A stretch of 64,000 nt of DNA, from the NCBI GenBank assembly GCA_022447275.1, contig JAKVBK010000005.1, forward strand, positions 1-64,000, in the 5' to 3' direction. This DNA comes from Oceanicola sp. (GTDB lineage: Bacteria > Pseudomonadota > Alphaproteobacteria > Rhodobacterales > Rhodobacteraceae). The position numbers were made by a program, and so were the translations under genes. Shown one piece after another: positions 27,398-48,070 of the stretch. The notes under the pieces are model-generated. The model worked only from the letters and a program-made list of their open reading frames with translations. It was not told the origin of the DNA and ran no database searches. How positions within the stretch are numbered: position 1 is the stretch's first letter; every line of letters begins with the position of its first letter.

Positions 27398-28399
27398 TCA
27401 GAGCAGCTTCGCCATGGCGATTGCGGTGTCTGACATCCGGCAGGAGAAGCCCCATTCGTTGTCATACCAGCTCAGGATGCGCACCATGTTGCCTTCCAGC
27501 ACCTTTGTCTGATCGGTGGCAAAGATCGACGAGTGGCTGTCATGGTTGAAATCCATAGAGACCAGTTTTTCGTCTGTGACGCCAAGAATGCCTTTGAGCG
27601 GCCCTGCTGCGGCTGCGCGCACTGCGTCGTTGATCTCTTCGGCGGTTGTGTCGCGGGCCGCCTCGAACGTCAGATCGACAACGGACACGTTCGGCGTGGG
27701 CACCCGGATGGCCACACCATCCAGCTTGCCCTTCAACTCGGGCAGAACCAGGCCAACCGCGCGCGCAGCGCCCGTGGAGGTTGGGATCATATTCATGGCG
27801 GCCGCCCGCGACCGGTAGAGATCCGAGTGCATAGTATCCAGCGTGGGCTGGTCGCCCGTGTAGCTGTGAATGGTGGTCATGAAGCCGCGCTTGATGCCAA
27901 CCGCGTCATTCAGCGTCTTTGCAACGGGGCTGAGGCAGTTGGTGGTGCAGGAGGCATTCGAGACGATGATATCGTCGGCGGTCAGGCTGTCATGGTTCAC
28001 ACCGTAGACGATTGTTGCATCCGCACCGCTGGCAGGGGCCGAAACCAGAACGCGCTTGGAGCCATTCTGGAGATGAAGCGCAGCCTTGTCGCGTGCGGTG
28101 AAGATACCAGTGCATTCAAGCGCAATATCCACATCCGCCCAAGGCAATTTGGCCGGATCGCGTTCGGCAGTGACCCGGATTTCCTGGCCGTCGATTGAAA
28201 TGCTGTTTTCGCCGACGGTTACGGTGCTGGGAAACCGACCGTGCACGCTGTCATGGCGCAGCAGATGGGCGTTGGTTTCAACCGGGCCGAGATCGTTGAT
28301 CGCGACGACCTGAATGTCATCACGGCCATTTTCGACGATGGAGCGCAGGACATTGCGCCCAATGCGCCCGAAACCATTGATTGCGACGGTAACGGTCAT
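27398..28399 (-). CDS. gap: Glyceraldehyde-3-phosphate dehydrogenase, copy 1
   Basis: The enzyme interconverts glyceraldehyde 3-phosphate and 1,3-bisphosphoglycerate. The 333-residue protein begins MTVTVAINGFGRIGRNVLRS, has the catalytic Cys in SNASCTTNCLSPVAK and ends with WYDNEWGFSCRMSD. The start is ATG 28399 with AAGGA upstream. It is a paralogue of the second gap gene 430 bases away. Its promoter region carries two tandem 14-base LacI-type palindromes at 28477-28505. Confidence 0.96.
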   Translation of the reverse strand: MTVTVAINGFGRIGRNVLRSIVENGRDDIQVVAINDLGPVETNAHLLRHDSVHGRFPSTVTVGENSISIDGQEIRVTAERDPAKLPWADVDIALECTGIFTARDKAALHLQNGSKRVLVSAPASGADATIVYGVNHDSLTADDIIVSNASCTTNCLSPVAKTLNDAVGIKRGFMTTIHSYTGDQPTLDTMHSDLYRSRAAAMNMIPTSTGAARAVGLVLPELKGKLDGVAIRVPTPNVSVVDLTFEAARDTTAEEINDAVRAAAAGPLKGILGVTDEKLVSMDFNHDSHSSIFATDQTKVLEGNMVRILSWYDNEWGFSCRMSDTAIAMAKLL

Positions 28400-28476
28400 G
28401 TGTGGTTCCTTTTGGGTTTTCACGAGCGGGCGAGGGGGGCAAAAGCTCCGCACGCGACTCAAAATGCAATTGGCCG

Positions 28477-28827: not shown

Positions 28828-29832
28828 TCAGTGCGTGAGGCGGCCCATGGCAGCGGCCACATCTGCCATGCGTGCAGAAAACCCCCACTCATTGTCATAC
28901 CATGCCAGCACGCGGACGGTGCGCCCGCCGACGACTTTTGTCTGATCCGGTGCAAAGATTGAGGAATGGGTCGTGTGATTGAAGTCGATTGATACTTTTG
29001 GTTCCGGATCATAGCTGAGAACCGCGCCCATGTGGCCCGCTGCGGCCTCTCGCACGATTTCATTGACGTCTTGAACAGTTACGTCTTTGGCTGCTTCAAA
29101 GGTCAGATCGACGGCCGAGACATTGGGTGTGGGGACGCGCAGGGCCGTGCCGTCCAGTTTGCCATCCAATTCAGGCAGAACATCGCGGAGCGCTTTGGCG
29201 GCCCCCGTGGATGTGGGGATCATGGCCATCGCCGCCGCGCGGGCGCGATACAGGTCGGAGTGGCGCCGATCCAGCGTGGGCTGGTCGCCGGTGTAGCTGT
29301 GGATCGTCGTCATGATGCCTCGCTCAATGCCAATGGCGTCATTGAGCACCTTGGCCAGTGGGGCGAGGCAGTTCGTGGTGCAGGATCCGTTGGACACCAC
29401 CTTGTGCATTTGCTCCAACTCGCGGTGATTGACGCCATAGACGATCGTCTTATCGGCATGCTTTGCGGGTGCCGACACCAGCACGCTCTTTGCGCCATGC
29501 TCCAAATGCACCGCTGCCTTGGCGCGTTCGTTGAACTTGCCGGTGCATTCCAGCACGACGTCGCAGCCGCTCCAGTCCAATTCTGTCGGGTCGTATGTTG
29601 AGTATACCTGCATTGGGCCGCGGCCCAGGTCCATCGTGGTGCCATCAACTTTGATTTCGCCCGCAAAGCGCCCGTGGACACTGTCATATCTCAGCAGGTG
29701 GGCATTGGTTTCGATGGGGCCGGTTGCGTTGATTTTCACGACCTGAACATCGTTGCGCGCGCTCTCTGCGATGTGCGCGAGTGTACAGCGGCCAATGCGA
29801 CCGAAACCGTTAATTCCGACAGTCACCGTCAT
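28828..29832 (-). CDS. gap: Glyceraldehyde-3-phosphate dehydrogenase, copy 2
   Basis: The 334-residue protein begins MTVTVGINGFGRIGRCTLAH, has the catalytic Cys in SNGSCTTNCLAPLAK, and ends in WYDNEWGFSARMAD. The start is ATG 29832 with AGGAG upstream; the longer frame is unsupported. It differs clearly from copy 1, so the two are old paralogues that may favour different directions or cofactors. It lies downstream of tkt on the same strand but has its own regulatory region with LacI-type palindromes and its own terminator. Confidence 0.96.
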   Translation of the reverse strand: MTVTVGINGFGRIGRCTLAHIAESARNDVQVVKINATGPIETNAHLLRYDSVHGRFAGEIKVDGTTMDLGRGPMQVYSTYDPTELDWSGCDVVLECTGKFNERAKAAVHLEHGAKSVLVSAPAKHADKTIVYGVNHRELEQMHKVVSNGSCTTNCLAPLAKVLNDAIGIERGIMTTIHSYTGDQPTLDRRHSDLYRARAAAMAMIPTSTGAAKALRDVLPELDGKLDGTALRVPTPNVSAVDLTFEAAKDVTVQDVNEIVREAAAGHMGAVLSYDPEPKVSIDFNHTTHSSIFAPDQTKVVGGRTVRVLAWYDNEWGFSARMADVAAAMGRLTH

Positions 29833-29924
29833 GTTGAGCTTCTCCTGCGCGCTTTTCCCATCCACTGCCAGCGAGATAGAGCCTTTTTTCTGTGCGAAAA
29901 AGAAAAATCCTAGTTAAGACAGTG

Positions 29925-42949: not shown

Positions 42950-43978
42950 ATGGCCCATAACGTCGCCATCCTAGGAGCGTCCGGCTACACGGGCGCCGAA
43001 TTGATCCGCTTGATTGCCGGCCACCCCGACATTCACATCACCGCGCTAGGCGCTGATCGCAAGGCCGGGCTTGAAATGTCGGCTGTGTTTCCGCATCTGC
43101 GCCACATGGCCTTGCCACGGCTGCAAAAACGCGAGGAGATGGACCTTGCCTCAGTCGATCTGGTGTTCTGTGCATTGCCCCATGTCACCAGCCAGCAGGT
43201 TATCCCGACATTGCCGAGCCATCTCAAGGTCGTAGACCTTTCAGCCGATTTCCGGCTGCGCGATCCGGCAGATTACGAAACCTGGTATGGGCAGCCGCAT
43301 GCGGCGCTGGATTTGCAGAAGGAGGCCGTCTACGGCCTGACCGAGTTTTATCGCGAGGATATCCGTGCGGCGCGTTTCGTTGCTGGCACAGGCTGCAATG
43401 CGGCAACCGGGCTATATTCGCTGCTGCCTTTGATGGACGGGGCGCTCATTGATCTGGAGGATATCATCCTCGACATGAAGGTGGGCGTTTCCGGCGCTGG
43501 GCGCGCGCTCAAAGAAAACTTGTTGCATGCAGAGCTGTCAGAGGGCTGGCATGCCTACGCCACAGGCGGCAAGCATCGCCATCTTGGCGAGTTTGATCAG
43601 GAACTGTCCAAAGCAGCGGGCCGTCCGGTGGCTGTCCATTTCACACCCACATTGGTGCCGGCGAACCGCGGTATCCTTTCTGCAGCCTATGTGAAAGGCG
43701 ATGCCACAGCGATCCACAGTGCCTTGTCGCAGCGCTATGCGGCGGAGAAGTTTGTCGAGGTTTTGCCCCTTGGTGAAGTGCCCTCCACGCGCCATATCAG
43801 GGGCAGTAACTTGGTGCATATCGGTGTATCTGCCGAACGGGGTGGGGGGCGTGCAACGGTCCATGCGGCCCTCGATAATCTGACGAAGGGCAGCTCTGGA
43901 CAAGCGCTGCAAAATGCCAATCTCATGCTTGGGCTTGCCGAAGATGCAGGCCTGAATTTGACGCCGCTGTTTCCTTAA
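42950..43978 (+). CDS. argC: N-acetyl-gamma-glutamyl-phosphate reductase
   Basis: ArgC catalyses the third step of arginine synthesis with NADPH. The 342-residue long-form protein starts [17 protein letters not shown] (Rossmann), has the catalytic Cys149 in AGTGCNAATG and the conserved [19 protein letters not shown] precedes the ATG at 42950. It stands between murI and ccmE, 29 bases before ccmE, so may be co-transcribed with it. Confidence 0.95.
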
Positions 43979-44007: not shown

Positions 44008-44451
44008 ATGAAAGGCCTGAAGAAGCAGCGCAGGATCCAAGTGATCGTGGCAGCTTTCGTTGCGCTGACCCTTGCCACTGTGCTGATTGGTTACGCCATG
44101 CGTGACGGGATCAATTTCTTCCGCTCGCCCTCCGAAGTGGCCGCAGAACCGCCCGCCCCCAGTGAAGTGTTTCGCATTGGCGGTTTGGTGGAAGAAGGGA
44201 CGCTTGTGCGCGGGCAGGGCGAAACCATCCGCTTCTCGGTCACGGATGGGGGGGCATCTGTCGCCGTTACCTATCGCGGTGTTCTTCCCGATCTCTTTGC
44301 TGAAGGGCAGGGCATGGTTGGCACGGGGCGCTTGGTAAATGGGGTGTTTGAGGCATCAGAGATCCTCGCACGGCATGATGAGACCTACATGCCCGCAGAG
44401 GTCGTCGACGCATTGAAAGAGCAGGGCGTCTACCAAGAGCCCGAGACCTGA
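44008..44451 (+). CDS. ccmE: Cytochrome c maturation haem chaperone CcmE
   Basis: CcmE covalently holds haem in the periplasm and hands it to the CcmF/H lyase. The 147-residue protein has one N-terminal membrane anchor (about 10-30), an OB-fold (FRIGGLVEEGTLVRG...) and the haem-attaching His123 in LARHDETYMP. ccmF and ccmH lie 1.6 kb downstream, separated by three lysis genes. Confidence 0.95.
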   Translation: MKGLKKQRRIQVIVAAFVALTLATVLIGYAMRDGINFFRSPSEVAAEPPAPSEVFRIGGLVEEGTLVRGQGETIRFSVTDGGASVAVTYRGVLPDLFAEGQGMVGTGRLVNGVFEASEILARHDETYMPAEVVDALKEQGVYQEPET

Positions 44452-44576
44452 GTGCGGTGCGCGGCCTGCCTTTTGGGCAAAGGCACGCAACACCCAGCGC
44501 ACGCATATCCTAAGCCCTGTTAACCCCTCTCTGGCAGCCTTTGCGCGAGTTTTTACCCGTGCCAAAGGCCAAGCCG

Positions 44577-45188
44577 ATGCAAACTGTGCAGACCATTGCC
44601 GAAGAAATCGTCATCCGTGAGGGGGGCTACGTCAACGATCCTGATGATCCGGGTGGGGCCACGAAATATGGCGTCACGATCCACACCATGCGCAGACTGG
44701 GGCTTGATCTCGATGGCGATGGCCGCGTCGGCACCTCCGATGTGCGCAAACTGACCAAGGCGCAGGCCGTCTCCATTTTCGTCGAGCATTACTTCGAGCG
44801 CCCTCGGATCAACGATTTGCCCCAACCGCTGCAGGCAAGCGTTTTCGACATGTATGTCAATGCGGGCGCACATGCGGTCAAAATCCTGCAGCGGCTGCTC
44901 AATGAGATGGGTTGGCCCGTGTCCGTGGACGGGATTATCGGCCCCCAGACGATCACGGCGGCGGGCGAGGCTGCGGCCAAAGCACCTGATCATATCGGTG
45001 ATGCCTACGGGATTGCCCGGCGCAACTACTACTACGCCTTGGCTGATCGGCGGCCCAAGTCGCGCAAATACGCGCGTCGCCGGGATGGCGGGAAGGGGGG
45101 CTGGATTGCCCGTGCCGAAGAATTCATTTCCCCGCGCTACCATCTCAGCGCGGCCCAACATGCGGAAAGGATTGCCTCATGGGGATGA
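44577..45188 (+). CDS. GH108-type N-acetylmuramidase (GTA/phage-type endolysin)
   Basis: The 203-residue enzyme should cleave peptidoglycan glycan strands. It has the GH108 signature REGGYVNDPDDPGGATKYGVT with catalytic Glu15 (REGGY), and a C-terminal peptidoglycan-binding-like half (INDLPQPLQASVFDMYVNAG...VDGIIGPQT). No signal peptide is present, so export needs the holin encoded next. AAAGG at 44564-44568 supports ATG 44577 over GTG 44559. It overlaps the holin gene by ten bases. By gene pairing it matches the lysis pair used by Rhodobacterales gene transfer agents. Confidence 0.88.
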   Translation: MQTVQTIAEEIVIREGGYVNDPDDPGGATKYGVTIHTMRRLGLDLDGDGRVGTSDVRKLTKAQAVSIFVEHYFERPRINDLPQPLQASVFDMYVNAGAHAVKILQRLLNEMGWPVSVDGIIGPQTITAAGEAAAKAPDHIGDAYGIARRNYYYALADRRPKSRKYARRRDGGKGGWIARAEEFISPRYHLSAAQHAERIASWG

Positions 45189-45772
45189 TCGGTTCGCTTT
45201 TTGCCACGCTTTTTGGGGGCAACCGCAATGTTATCCGGGAAACGGTAGAGGTGTTCCGCCCCAACGCGGAGGCAGAAGAGCAACGCCTCTCGATCAAGGA
45301 GCAGGCCGCACTGGCGCAATTCGCCGCCGAGTTCGCTGCGCCACGCAAAGGCCTGTTTGATCGCTTCGTGGATGGCCTCAACCGTCTGCCCCGTCCGGCA
45401 TTGGCGCTTGGCACTTTGGGCCTGTTTGTAGCGGCCATGATCGATCCGATCTGGTTTGCCGGGCGCATGCAGGGCATCGCGCTTGTGCCAGAGCCGCTTT
45501 GGTGGCTGCTCGGCGCAATTGTGTCGTTCTATTTTGGCGCGCGCCATCAGGCCAAAGGCCAGGAGTTTCAACGCAGTTTGACGGCCACGGTTGCCCGCAC
45601 AAAACAGGTAACGGCCAATCTTGCTGAATTGCGAGCTCTGGAAGCAGGGGCGGGTCTGCCCGAAGCAGATGGGTTTTCCCCTGATATGACTGTCGATGGT
45701 GAATTGTTGCCCACCGCTGCCGGCGCCCATGACAATCCGGCCCTGTCAGATTGGAGGCAGAGCCGTGGATAA
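45179..45772 (+). CDS. Three-TM holin for gene-transfer-agent release
   Basis: The 197-residue protein begins GMIGSLFATLFGGNRNVIRETVEVFRPNAEA and has two or three hydrophobic stretches (N-terminal; LALGTLGLFVAAMIDPIWF; LWWLLGAIVSFYFGARHQAKGQ). This matches the 'holin of 3TMs for gene-transfer release' family. It would permeabilise the inner membrane to let the endolysin reach the wall. The gene overlaps the endolysin by 10 bases and the next small gene by 8, so the trio is one translational unit. Confidence 0.87.
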   Translation: MGMIGSLFATLFGGNRNVIRETVEVFRPNAEAEEQRLSIKEQAALAQFAAEFAAPRKGLFDRFVDGLNRLPRPALALGTLGLFVAAMIDPIWFAGRMQGIALVPEPLWWLLGAIVSFYFGARHQAKGQEFQRSLTATVARTKQVTANLAELRALEAGAGLPEADGFSPDMTVDGELLPTAAGAHDNPALSDWRQSRG

Positions 45773-45986
45773 CGATTGGATGCAACGGATTGAGCAGAAC
45801 CTCCACACGCTGGAAACCCGCACTGCGGTTGAGCAGGTCCATCGTGCGGCTGTCGAACGCAGGCTTTCTGTCATTGAAGATATGCTAAAATGGCTCGTTC
45901 GGCTGGTGATCGGAGCGCTGATCATGGCCGTCGTCGCCTACCTTCTGAAAGGCGGCTTTGTTTTGCCGAGTGGGCTGAGCACTTGA
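45765..45986 (+). CDS. 73-residue XhlA-like small membrane protein, third lysis gene
   Basis: A GTG at 45765, seven bases after a perfect GGAGG (45753-45757), opens a 73-residue frame: a polar heptad-like helix (DNDWMQRIEQNLHTLETRTAVEQVHRAA) then a single C-terminal membrane helix (LVRLVIGALIMAVVAYLL). This is the topology of phage XhlA (haemolysin-like) proteins, which assist holins. It overlaps the holin by eight bases. The longer frame from 45696 is unsupported. Function as a lysis accessory is inferred. Confidence 0.72.
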   Translation: MDNDWMQRIEQNLHTLETRTAVEQVHRAAVERRLSVIEDMLKWLVRLVIGALIMAVVAYLLKGGFVLPSGLST

Positions 45987-46090: not shown

Positions 46091-48070
46091 ATGATAGTTG
46101 AACTTGGTCATTTCGCGCTGGTACTGGCTGCGGTTGTCGCTTTGGTGCAAGCCACCGTTCCATTGATCGGTGCCCATTACCGGTGGTCTGGTTGGATGGC
46201 GGTGGCTGGTCCTGCGGCCACGGCGCAGTTTTTGCTCTGTGCGGCCAGTTTTGCAGCCCTGACCTATGCTTTCGTCACGTCAGACTTTTCGCTGCGCCTC
46301 GTAACGCTCAACTCGCATACGCTCAAGCCGATGCTCTACAAAGTGTCCGGCGTATGGGGAAATCACGAAGGCTCAATGCTTTTGTGGGTTTTGATTTTGG
46401 CTCTCTTTGGTGCTTCTGCGGCTTGGTTCGGTGGCAACCTGTCCACAACCTTTCGGGCGCGCGTGCTTGCGGTTCAGGCGGCTGTTGGCGTGGCCTTCTA
46501 CGCCTTCATTCTGTTCACCTCCAACCCGTTTGAGCGCCTCGCAGCCCCGCCGATGAACGGCCAAGACCTCAACCCGCTGTTGCAGGATCCTGGCCTCGCC
46601 TTTCATCCGCCCTTTCTCTATCTCGGCTATGTTGGGCTCTCGATGGCGTTTTCCTTTGCGGTGGCGGCTCTGATTGAGGGCCGGGTGGATGCCGCCTGGG
46701 GGCGTTGGGTGCGTCCTTGGACGCTGGCAGCTTGGATGTTTTTGACGATCGGGATCGCGCTTGGGTCGTGGTGGGCCTATTACGAGCTAGGCTGGGGCGG
46801 TTTCTGGTTCTGGGATCCTGTTGAAAACGCCAGCTTCATGCCTTGGCTTCTGGCCGCAGCCTTGCTGCATTCCGCCATCGTTGTTGAAAAGCGGGAGGCC
46901 CTGAAGAACTGGACAATCCTGCTGGCGATCATGGCGTTTGGATTCTCCTTGATCGGGACGTTTATCGTCCGCTCTGGCGTGCTGACATCTGTCCACGCCT
47001 TTGCCAATGATCCAGAGCGCGGCCTGCTGATCCTGATCATCCTGATGGTGTTTACCGGCGGGGCGCTCACTCTGTATGCGGCGCGCGCGGGCACGATGGA
47101 GGCCAAGGGCGTGTTTGGCATGGTCAGCCGTGAGAGCGCCCTTGTTCTCAACAACATTCTGCTCGCCGTTTCGTGCTTTGTGGTGTTTGTCGGAACGCTT
47201 TGGCCCCTCGTGGCCGAAATGATCTGGGACAGGACTCTGTCTGTCGGCCCCCCGTTTTTCGATGCGGCCTTCAGCCCCTTCATGATTGCCCTGCTTGCGA
47301 TCCTGCCCATCGGCTCTGCCTTGGCGTGGAAGCGCGCAAAGCCGGGCCGCACGATGAAAACGCTTTGGGGCGCGCTTATTCTGTCGCTCGTTTTGGCGGC
47401 CTTGGCCTTCGCGGTCCAGACCGAGACGACAATCCTCGCCCCGTTGGGGGCGGCGCTTGGGGGCTGGGTCATTGCAGGGGCAGCAACGGACTTGTTCCAA
47501 CGCACCGGGCGCGGCGCCCTCAGTGGGCGCCTACAGCGTTTGACGCGTTTGCCGGGCGCAGATTGGGGCAAGGCCTTGGCCCATGGCGGCCTTGGGATCA
47601 CCACGCTCGGCATCTGCCTTTTGATGGCATGGCAGGTGGAAGATATTCGCGTGGCTCAGATAAATGCACCCTATGAGGTTGGGGGCTATACGGTCATTCT
47701 GCGCGATGTCAGTGAGGTGCAGGGCCCGAATTACTATTCTACCATTGCCACGATCGAGATGCAGCGCGATGGGCGCACAGTGGCTATGCTCAGCCCGGAA
47801 AAACGGATCTACCCGGTCGCACAGATGCCCACCACGGAGGCTGCGATTGCGAATGGATTCCTGCGCGATCTCTACGTGGTGATCGGCGATCCGCAGGCGG
47901 ATGGAGCTTGGGCTGTGCGCACCTATATCAAGCCCTTTGCCAATTGGATCTGGGCTGGCTGCATCATCATGGCACTCGGGGGGCTGGCCTCGCTGACGGA
48001 TCGCCGCTACCGGGTGGCTGCGGGCGCGCGCAAGCAGGCGCCGCCAAACGCCGGAGTTCCCGCCGAATGA
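46091..48070 (+). CDS. ccmF: Haem lyase CcmF
   Basis: CcmF, with CcmH, attaches haem to apocytochrome c at the periplasmic face. The 659-residue polytopic protein contains the WWD haem-binding motif ELGWGGFWFWDPVENASFMPWL around residues 230-250 and conserved histidines (NSHTLKPM, DPGLAFHPPF). It is followed directly by ccmH, whose ATG overlaps its stop. In many alphaproteobacteria ccmE and ccmF are adjacent; here a lysis cassette sits between them. Confidence 0.96.
   Translation: MIVELGHFALVLAAVVALVQATVPLIGAHYRWSGWMAVAGPAATAQFLLCAASFAALTYAFVTSDFSLRLVTLNSHTLKPMLYKVSGVWGNHEGSMLLWVLILALFGASAAWFGGNLSTTFRARVLAVQAAVGVAFYAFILFTSNPFERLAAPPMNGQDLNPLLQDPGLAFHPPFLYLGYVGLSMAFSFAVAALIEGRVDAAWGRWVRPWTLAAWMFLTIGIALGSWWAYYELGWGGFWFWDPVENASFMPWLLAAALLHSAIVVEKREALKNWTILLAIMAFGFSLIGTFIVRSGVLTSVHAFANDPERGLLILIILMVFTGGALTLYAARAGTMEAKGVFGMVSRESALVLNNILLAVSCFVVFVGTLWPLVAEMIWDRTLSVGPPFFDAAFSPFMIALLAILPIGSALAWKRAKPGRTMKTLWGALILSLVLAALAFAVQTETTILAPLGAALGGWVIAGAATDLFQRTGRGALSGRLQRLTRLPGADWGKALAHGGLGITTLGICLLMAWQVEDIRVAQINAPYEVGGYTVILRDVSEVQGPNYYSTIATIEMQRDGRTVAMLSPEKRIYPVAQMPTTEAAIANGFLRDLYVVIGDPQADGAWAVRTYIKPFANWIWAGCIIMALGGLASLTDRRYRVAAGARKQAPPNAGVPAE

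What the first reader, a model, noticed from the sequence alone, without database searches (positions are those of the whole stretch)
44577..45986. GTA-type lysis trio embedded between ccmE and ccmF
Three overlapping genes (10- and 8-base overlaps) encode a GH108 endolysin, a holin of the gene-transfer-agent 3TM family, and a 73-residue XhlA-like protein. No head, tail or packaging genes are in the window, matching GTA systems whose lysis genes lie apart from the structural cluster. The third gene has a perfect GGAGG but a GTG start and short length, so it is easily missed. The lysis unit interrupting cytochrome c maturation could link GTA release to ccm transcription.
Basis: partly seen in the sequence, partly recalled or inferred. 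Interest (0 to 1): 0.7.

Follow-up and report, generated by a model that had tools for sequence, protein, structure and literature searches.

The report
Hairpin-guarded lysis genes of a GTA
Inside a housekeeping operon sit the cell-bursting genes of a domesticated virus (a gene transfer agent), and most related bacteria keep in front of them an RNA hairpin that hides the ribosome-binding site of the first gene, apparently so that ordinary operon transcripts do not burst the cell, much as phage T4 does with its lysozyme gene.

Summary
In detail: endolysin 44577-45188, holin 45179-45772 and a 73-codon gene 45765-45986 overlap by 10 and 8 bases between ccmE and ccmF. They are the known RcGTA lysis genes in their native place: the only Rhodobacter capsulatus orthologue (rcc00555, then rcc00556) also follows argC-ccmE. 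The third gene is real but optional (34 of 180 loci, purifying selection, XhlA-like) and absent from R. capsulatus. The window's genome looked GTA-less, but a contig ends inside the GTA large terminase gene: an assembly gap. New is the leader: a TTAACC box (106 of 109 leaders), a CANNCT box at fixed spacing, and an inverted repeat whose 3' arm covers the endolysin Shine-Dalgarno site. The arms differ between genera, yet each 5' arm pairs best with its own 3' arm (z = -18; other gene starts -2 to +1.5). Most likely, ccm read-through RNA is translationally silent, while RNA started inside the hairpin exposes the site, as in T4 lysozyme gene e. The structure is supported by sequence; the switch is inferred. 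That the hairpin depends on ccmE lying upstream is suggestive but not significant after phylogenetic correction.

The parts
42950..43978 (+). argC, upstream neighbour
   Evidence: ORF; argC-ccmE precede the endolysin in most relatives and in R. capsulatus
44008..44451 (+). ccmE, upstream neighbour
   Evidence: PF03100 106.1 bits, NF009731 219.5 bits
44520..44525 (+). TTAACC box (CtrA half-site-like) at -57 from the endolysin ATG
   Evidence: TTAA between -75 and -38 in 106 of 109 non-redundant leaders; about 10% expected after shuffling
44535..44540 (+). CANNCT box (here CAGCCT), -10-like, at fixed spacing from TTAACC
   Evidence: A at position 17 in 71%, T at position 21 in 81% of leaders aligned on TTAA; same spacing in loci that are not behind ccmE
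44537..44569 (+). RNA hairpin: 5' arm GCCTTTG 44537-44543, 3' arm CAAAGGC 44563-44569, which holds the endolysin AAAGG Shine-Dalgarno
   Evidence: MFE z = -3.0; own-pair energy in the top 1% of cross pairs
44577..45188 (+). endolysin (N-acetylmuramidase, GH108), orthologue of rcc00555
   Evidence: NF040573 366.8 bits; 66% identical to the R. capsulatus protein
45179..45772 (+). holin of the GTA 3-TM family, orthologue of rcc00556
   Evidence: PF11351 103.2 bits
45765..45986 (+). XhlA-like small membrane protein, GTG start, optional third gene
   Evidence: conserved in 34 of 180 loci with motif ETRNAVDEVHRxNVxxRLxxIEDTLKWLVRL; dN/dS median 0.36
46091..48070 (+). ccmF, downstream neighbour
   Evidence: PF16327 389 bits, TIGR00353 644 bits

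Best explanation
This is the lysis cassette of an RcGTA-type gene transfer agent: endolysin, holin and, in some lineages, an XhlA-like third protein, carried as an overlapping block behind ccmE. A hairpin in the leader hides the endolysin Shine-Dalgarno site in any RNA that reads in from ccmE, so housekeeping transcription of argC-ccm does not produce lysis protein; because holin (10-base overlap) and the third gene (8-base overlap) start inside the preceding frame, one hairpin may hold the whole block. When the GTA programme is on (GafA with CtrA), RNA polymerase starts at the TTAACC/CANNCT promoter that is built into and just before the 5' arm; the start point falls at or behind the end of that arm, the RNA lacks it, the ribosome site is free and the cell lyses. 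Shown here: cassette identity, orthology by position, conservation of the third gene, the promoter-like boxes, and the conserved own-arm complementarity over the ribosome site. Inferred: the transcription start, the translational silence of read-through RNA, and the coupling.
For: Families and synteny; R. capsulatus genome identified by 100% capsid identity to PDB 6tb9, its only NF040573 gene lies behind argC-ccmE. Leader -42..+5 of 81 loci: mean MFE z -2.9; starts of ccmE, ccmF, argC and holin in the same loci -0.05, -0.22, -0.07, +0.17. Replicated in 100 further genomes. Own arm against foreign arms, 112 non-redundant leaders: -16.75 against -11.90 kcal/mol, z -18.1, 0 of 5000 permutations; GC-matched p = 8e-14; same test at other starts z -2.0 to +1.5; upstream control region +1.2. 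Shine-Dalgarno stretch unpaired 0.20 in long RNA, 0.47-0.51 if the RNA starts between -24 and -16; 0.38-0.49 for control genes. TTAACC and CANNCT at fixed spacing. Published: GafA binds the lysis-cassette promoter and CtrA is needed for endolysin induction (PMC6363796); CtrA half-sites at this promoter (PMC9638019).
Against: No transcript or translation data. The R. capsulatus hairpin is weak (z -1.5; Shine-Dalgarno unpaired 0.16-0.29 in long RNA, 0.36-0.40 in short). In the second set, 11 of 74 leaders lie more than 100 bp behind ccmE and are weaker on average; some have no hairpin. The contrast behind/not behind ccmE (p = 5e-6 and 3e-4) comes mainly from one large clade and is not significant on independent branches. 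Column-wise covariation in sequence-based alignments is modest because the stems shift in register.
Confidence: 0.62

Rival explanations
1. The hairpin is the intrinsic terminator of the argC-ccmE transcript that merely lies close to the endolysin start because the intergenic space is short.
For: 7 of 109 non-redundant leaders have a TTTT run between hairpin and ATG.
Against: 102 of 109 have no T run. Where ccmE is 780-890 bp away (Celeribacter), the hairpin stays at the endolysin start and not at the ccmE stop. The 3' arm nearly always covers the ribosome site.
Confidence: 0.12
2. The inverted repeat is a DNA operator (for example for GafA or a repressor), not an RNA structure.
For: It lies in the promoter region that GafA binds in R. 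capsulatus (PMC6363796).
Against: A site for one conserved regulator should keep its sequence; here the arms differ between genera and only the pairing is kept. Loop length varies from 3 to about 20 bases.
Confidence: 0.12
3. The hairpin is an RNA switch worked by a partner (small RNA, protein or temperature) rather than by the choice of start point.
For: It covers the ribosome site as such switches do.
Against: No conserved loop sequence; the fixed TTAACC/CANNCT boxes overlap the 5' arm, which fits start-point choice. No Rfam family.
Confidence: 0.1
4. The lysis genes are a prophage remnant or an orphan unit in a genome without GTA.
For: Portal, GTA TIM domain, capsid and GafA were not found in this assembly.
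Against: Contig C48 holds mltG, a GTA g1-like frame and the start of the large terminase (54-residue fragment 61-78% identical to GTA terminases) and ends there; the same synteny exists in R. capsulatus and most of the family.
Confidence: 0.04

Closest known systems
RcGTA lysis genes rcc00555 (endolysin) / rcc00556 (holin) of Rhodobacter capsulatus
   Same: Same endolysin and holin families, same 10-base gene overlap, TTAACC box, position behind argC-ccmE.
   Different: R. capsulatus has no third gene, ccmF does not follow, and its hairpin is weaker.
Phage T4 lysozyme gene e leader (early RNA folded over the ribosome site, late promoter in the 5' strand; PMC3014915)
   Same: Lysis enzyme gene; hairpin over the ribosome site; promoter-like boxes in or just before the 5' strand of the hairpin.
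   Different: T4 separates early from late phage RNA; here a host housekeeping operon would be separated from a GTA promoter. The boxes differ. Behaviour untested.
Bacillus subtilis PBSX cassette xhlA-xhlB-xlyA
   Same: Endolysin, holin and a small XhlA-type membrane protein in one unit; in PBSX all three were needed for lysis-driven vesicle release (PMC5589764).
   Different: Gene order reversed, different holin and enzyme families; the present small protein is just under the Pfam XhlA cut-off.
LypABC of the Caulobacter crescentus GTA (PMC13236601)
   Same: Lysis function for GTA release encoded apart from the structural cluster.
   Different: No holin or endolysin; unrelated proteins.

Membership tests
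RcGTA-type lysis cassette | endolysin of the holin-associated N-acetylmuramidase family | tested here: met
   NF040573 366.8 bits, cut-off 240
RcGTA-type lysis cassette | holin of family GTA_holin_3TM directly behind it | tested here: met
   PF11351 103.2 bits, 10-base overlap
RcGTA-type lysis cassette | orthologous position in R. capsulatus | tested here: met
   argC-ccmE-endolysin-holin in G429 = L210
RcGTA-type lysis cassette | GTA structural cluster in the same genome | tested here: met
   mltG, g1-like frame and start of large terminase at the end of contig C48; the rest is missing from the assembly
RcGTA-type lysis cassette | GafA activator in the genome | tested here: inconclusive
   no DUF6456 match in an assembly of 96 contigs, 95.6% complete; the mttB contig ends 0.3 kb behind mttB
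RcGTA-type lysis cassette | needed for GTA release | not testable with these tools
   no experiment; reported for rcc00555 in R. capsulatus (PMC3423380, PMC6209664)
XhlA (PF10779) | score at or above the gathering cut-off | tested here: not met
   34.3 against 34.7 bits; all 12 relatives scanned match, best E = 6.5e-10; hence only 'XhlA-like'
T4 gene e-type leader | hairpin over the ribosome site of the lysis enzyme | tested here: met
   predicted and conserved
T4 gene e-type leader | promoter whose start point removes the 5' strand | tested here: inconclusive
   boxes at fixed spacing overlap the 5' arm; start point not mapped
T4 gene e-type leader | long RNA untranslated, short RNA translated | not testable with these tools
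   only folding estimates
intrinsic terminator | T run behind the hairpin | tested here: not met
   102 of 109 leaders, the window included, have none

The most novel reading that the evidence does not exclude
GTA lysis in the Rhodobacteraceae is guarded by an RNA hairpin with a built-in promoter, the same solution as T4 lysozyme, reached by a domesticated phage whose killing genes were moved into a housekeeping operon; an XhlA-like third protein tunes the holin in part of the family.
Probability: 0.5. Interest if true: 0.75.

Novelty: new variant of a known kind. Interest (0 to 1): 0.6.

Why it matters
GTA producers carry lethal genes permanently and switch them on in only a few cells. Where the lysis genes sit, and why they do not fire from the transcription around them, is not treated in the papers I could search. 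A conserved hairpin over the endolysin ribosome site offers a concrete, cheaply testable safety catch, usable in R. capsulatus and its near relatives, and adds an overlooked third gene to the GTA lysis unit of part of the family.

Tried and rejected
(1) 'GTA-less genome with an orphan lysis unit': supported at first by four negative searches, rejected when contig C48 proved to end inside GTA g2. (2) Hairpin as ccmE terminator: rejected for most loci (no T run; in Celeribacter it stays with the endolysin start although ccmE is far). (3) Synteny contrast as independent proof that the hairpin serves against ccm read-through: large in raw numbers but only 4 independent supported pairs, no significance, so used as a hint only. 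(4) Column-wise covariation from sequence alignments: little signal because stems shift; replaced by the own-against-foreign-arm test. (5) Rfam: no family at the leader. (7) Pfam and NCBIfam scans of the g1 and terminase fragments gave nothing; identity rests on tblastn and position.

Full report
What is there. Three frames follow each other on the + strand between ccmE (44008-44451) and ccmF (46091-48070): an endolysin at 44577-45188, a holin at 45179-45772 and a 73-codon frame with a GTG start at 45765-45986. The endolysin scores 366.8 bits with NCBIfam NF040573, holin-associated N-acetylmuramidase (cut-off 240), and has GH108 and PG_binding_3 domains; the holin scores 103.2 bits with PF11351, GTA_holin_3TM; the small protein scores 34.3 bits with PF10779 XhlA, whose cut-off is 34.7.

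Is it the GTA lysis unit? Of the 80 closest relatives of the endolysin in the genome collection, 66 have ccmE upstream, 70 have ccmF downstream, 58 have both. To tie this to the experimentally studied system I took the RcGTA capsid from the PDB match (6tb9, Rcc01687), found the genome with 100% identity to it (G429, chromosome contig of 3,738,958 bases) and looked for the endolysin there: one match only, at 593.9 kb, in the order argC-ccmE-endolysin-holin. That its locus tags are rcc00555/556 rests on its being the only match, on its position, and on the literature that names rcc00555/556 as RcGTA endolysin and holin (PMC3423380, PMC8601537). In R. capsulatus no third gene and no ccmF follow. 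Among 398 genomes of the family (at least 90% complete), 341 have the endolysin above the cut-off and 352 the GTA TIM domain; 322 have both, 27 neither, 30 and 19 only one (Fisher p = 2e-14, not corrected for relatedness). Of the 19 with endolysin but no TIM domain (the window's genome is one of them), 17 still have GafA, against 6 of the 27 with neither.

The window's own genome. But the GTA cluster of relatives starts behind mltG. The mltG contig of this genome (C48) goes on into a GTA g1-like frame and the N-terminal part of the large terminase, and stops at ...ILGGRGAGKTHA at the contig end; the terminase piece is 61-78% identical to that of five GTA clusters and lies at the same place. 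The missing parts are therefore an assembly gap. GafA stays unproven: the contig with the usual neighbour mttB ends 0.3 kb behind it.

The third gene. A profile built from the window protein and its relatives finds the same frame behind the holin in 34 of 180 loci, each with E < 1e-27 and none in a grey zone. In nearly all it starts with ATG 8-11 bases inside the holin frame; the GTG is a peculiarity of the window. The core ETRNAVDEVHRxNVxxRLxxIEDTLKWLVRLIIGG is close to invariant, pairwise dN/dS has a median of 0.36 and is 0.09-0.3 for close pairs. It occurs in about seven separate clades, so it is gained or lost repeatedly. By analogy with PBSX, where XhlA, XhlB and XlyA act together (PMC5589764), it probably helps the holin; this is inference.

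The leader. Reading the stretch before the endolysin in all loci showed two things. First, TTAA(C) lies 40-72 bases before the ATG in 106 of 109 non-redundant leaders (about 10% expected after shuffling). Aligned on it, A at position 17 and T at position 21 are conserved (71% and 81%), that is TTAACC-N9-CANNCT, also in loci that are not behind ccmE. In the window these are 44520-44525 and 44535-44540. TTAAC is the CtrA half-site motif; GafA binds this promoter region in R. capsulatus, and CtrA is needed for endolysin induction (PMC6363796, PMC9638019). Second, between these boxes and the ATG lies an inverted repeat whose 3' arm covers the Shine-Dalgarno site; in the window GCCTTTG 44537-44543 with CAAAGGC 44563-44569.

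Is the hairpin more than chance? The stretch -42..+5 has a mean folding z-score of -2.9 over 81 loci (median -3.1), while the starts of ccmE, ccmF, argC and holin in the same loci average between -0.22 and +0.17. A second set of 100 genomes, mostly of different genera, gives -2.39 for the 74 that lie behind ccmE. The Shine-Dalgarno stretch is unpaired with probability 0.17-0.20, against 0.38-0.49 for the other genes. For 112 leaders that are less than 72% alike, I paired every 5' half with every 3' half: own pairs average -16.75 kcal/mol, foreign pairs -11.90, z = -18.1, none of 5000 permutations as good; matched for GC the difference stays (p = 8e-14); the same test gives z between -2.0 and +1.5 at the other four gene starts and +1.2 for a 5' half taken further upstream. 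So the pairing is kept while the sequences change. That is what selection on an RNA structure leaves, and what a binding site for one conserved regulator would not.

What it may do. If RNA begins upstream of the 5' arm, the site is closed (0.20 unpaired on average); if it begins at -24 to -16 it is open (0.47-0.51); in the window the change occurs between -40 and -32 (0.20 to 0.56). Taking CANNCT as the -10 element, or TTAACC as the -35 element, the start point falls near position 28 or 36 of the aligned leader, at or behind the end of the 5' arm. RNA from the GTA promoter would thus lack the 5' arm; RNA from argC-ccmE would contain it. T4 does this with lysozyme gene e, where early RNA is folded and late promoters lie in the 5' strand (PMC3014915). 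Two further observations fit but do not prove it. Loci in which the endolysin does not follow ccmE have weak hairpins (z -0.95 and -0.90; p = 5e-6 and 3e-4), many with an exposed AGGAGG; yet these loci fall mainly into one clade, and only four independent supported pairs are available, without significance. Within the second set the hairpin is stronger the closer ccmE is (Spearman 0.39, p = 6e-4), again uncorrected. In 7 of 109 leaders a T run follows the hairpin, which would make it a terminator, another way to the same end.

Weak points. R. capsulatus itself has a weak hairpin (z -1.5). No transcript or translation was measured. Start points are guesses from boxes. Subscription papers (for instance Hynes 2012 and 2016, Westbye 2013) were not available, so a mention of the ccm neighbourhood there cannot be excluded; none of the open papers searched mentions it in this connection.

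Verdict. A correctly observed, known kind of unit (RcGTA lysis genes) in a conserved but apparently undiscussed place, with a conserved optional third gene and a conserved ribosome-site hairpin that suggests a T4-like safety catch.

Noticed in passing
L100 (G000:C48:11000-18755), last 0.75 kb: The window genome's GTA head-tail cluster starts behind mltG and is cut by the contig end in the large terminase; genome surveys would score this species as GTA-negative.
   Followed up: yes
G335, G036, G135: Relatives without an intact GTA TIM domain keep broken capsid pieces with stops or frame changes; GTA loss seems gradual while the endolysin and usually GafA remain.
   Followed up: partly
L024, L119, L147, L157, L170, L185, L188: In seven leaders a T run lies between hairpin and endolysin ATG, so the hairpin looks like an intrinsic terminator placed on the start codon.
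   Followed up: partly
L016, L021, L025, L036, L058 and similar (Celeribacter, Aliiroseovarius): 0.8-0.9 kb of extra sequence between holin and ccmF, or between ccmE and endolysin; content not identified.
   Followed up: no
G109, G410; G415, G159: Some genomes hold up to 4 copies of the endolysin family or up to 8 GTA TIM domain matches, probably prophages related to GTA.
   Followed up: no
window 27398-28462 and 28828-29865, - strand: Two neighbouring genes that look like glyceraldehyde-3-phosphate dehydrogenases of different sequence, next to a transketolase-like gene (read from the translations, not searched).
   Followed up: no
literature, PMC9765227: ccmE was among 14 gene families whose codon bias follows that of GTA genes in Alphaproteobacteria; whether lysis genes lie behind ccmE outside the Rhodobacteraceae was not tested.
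   Followed up: no
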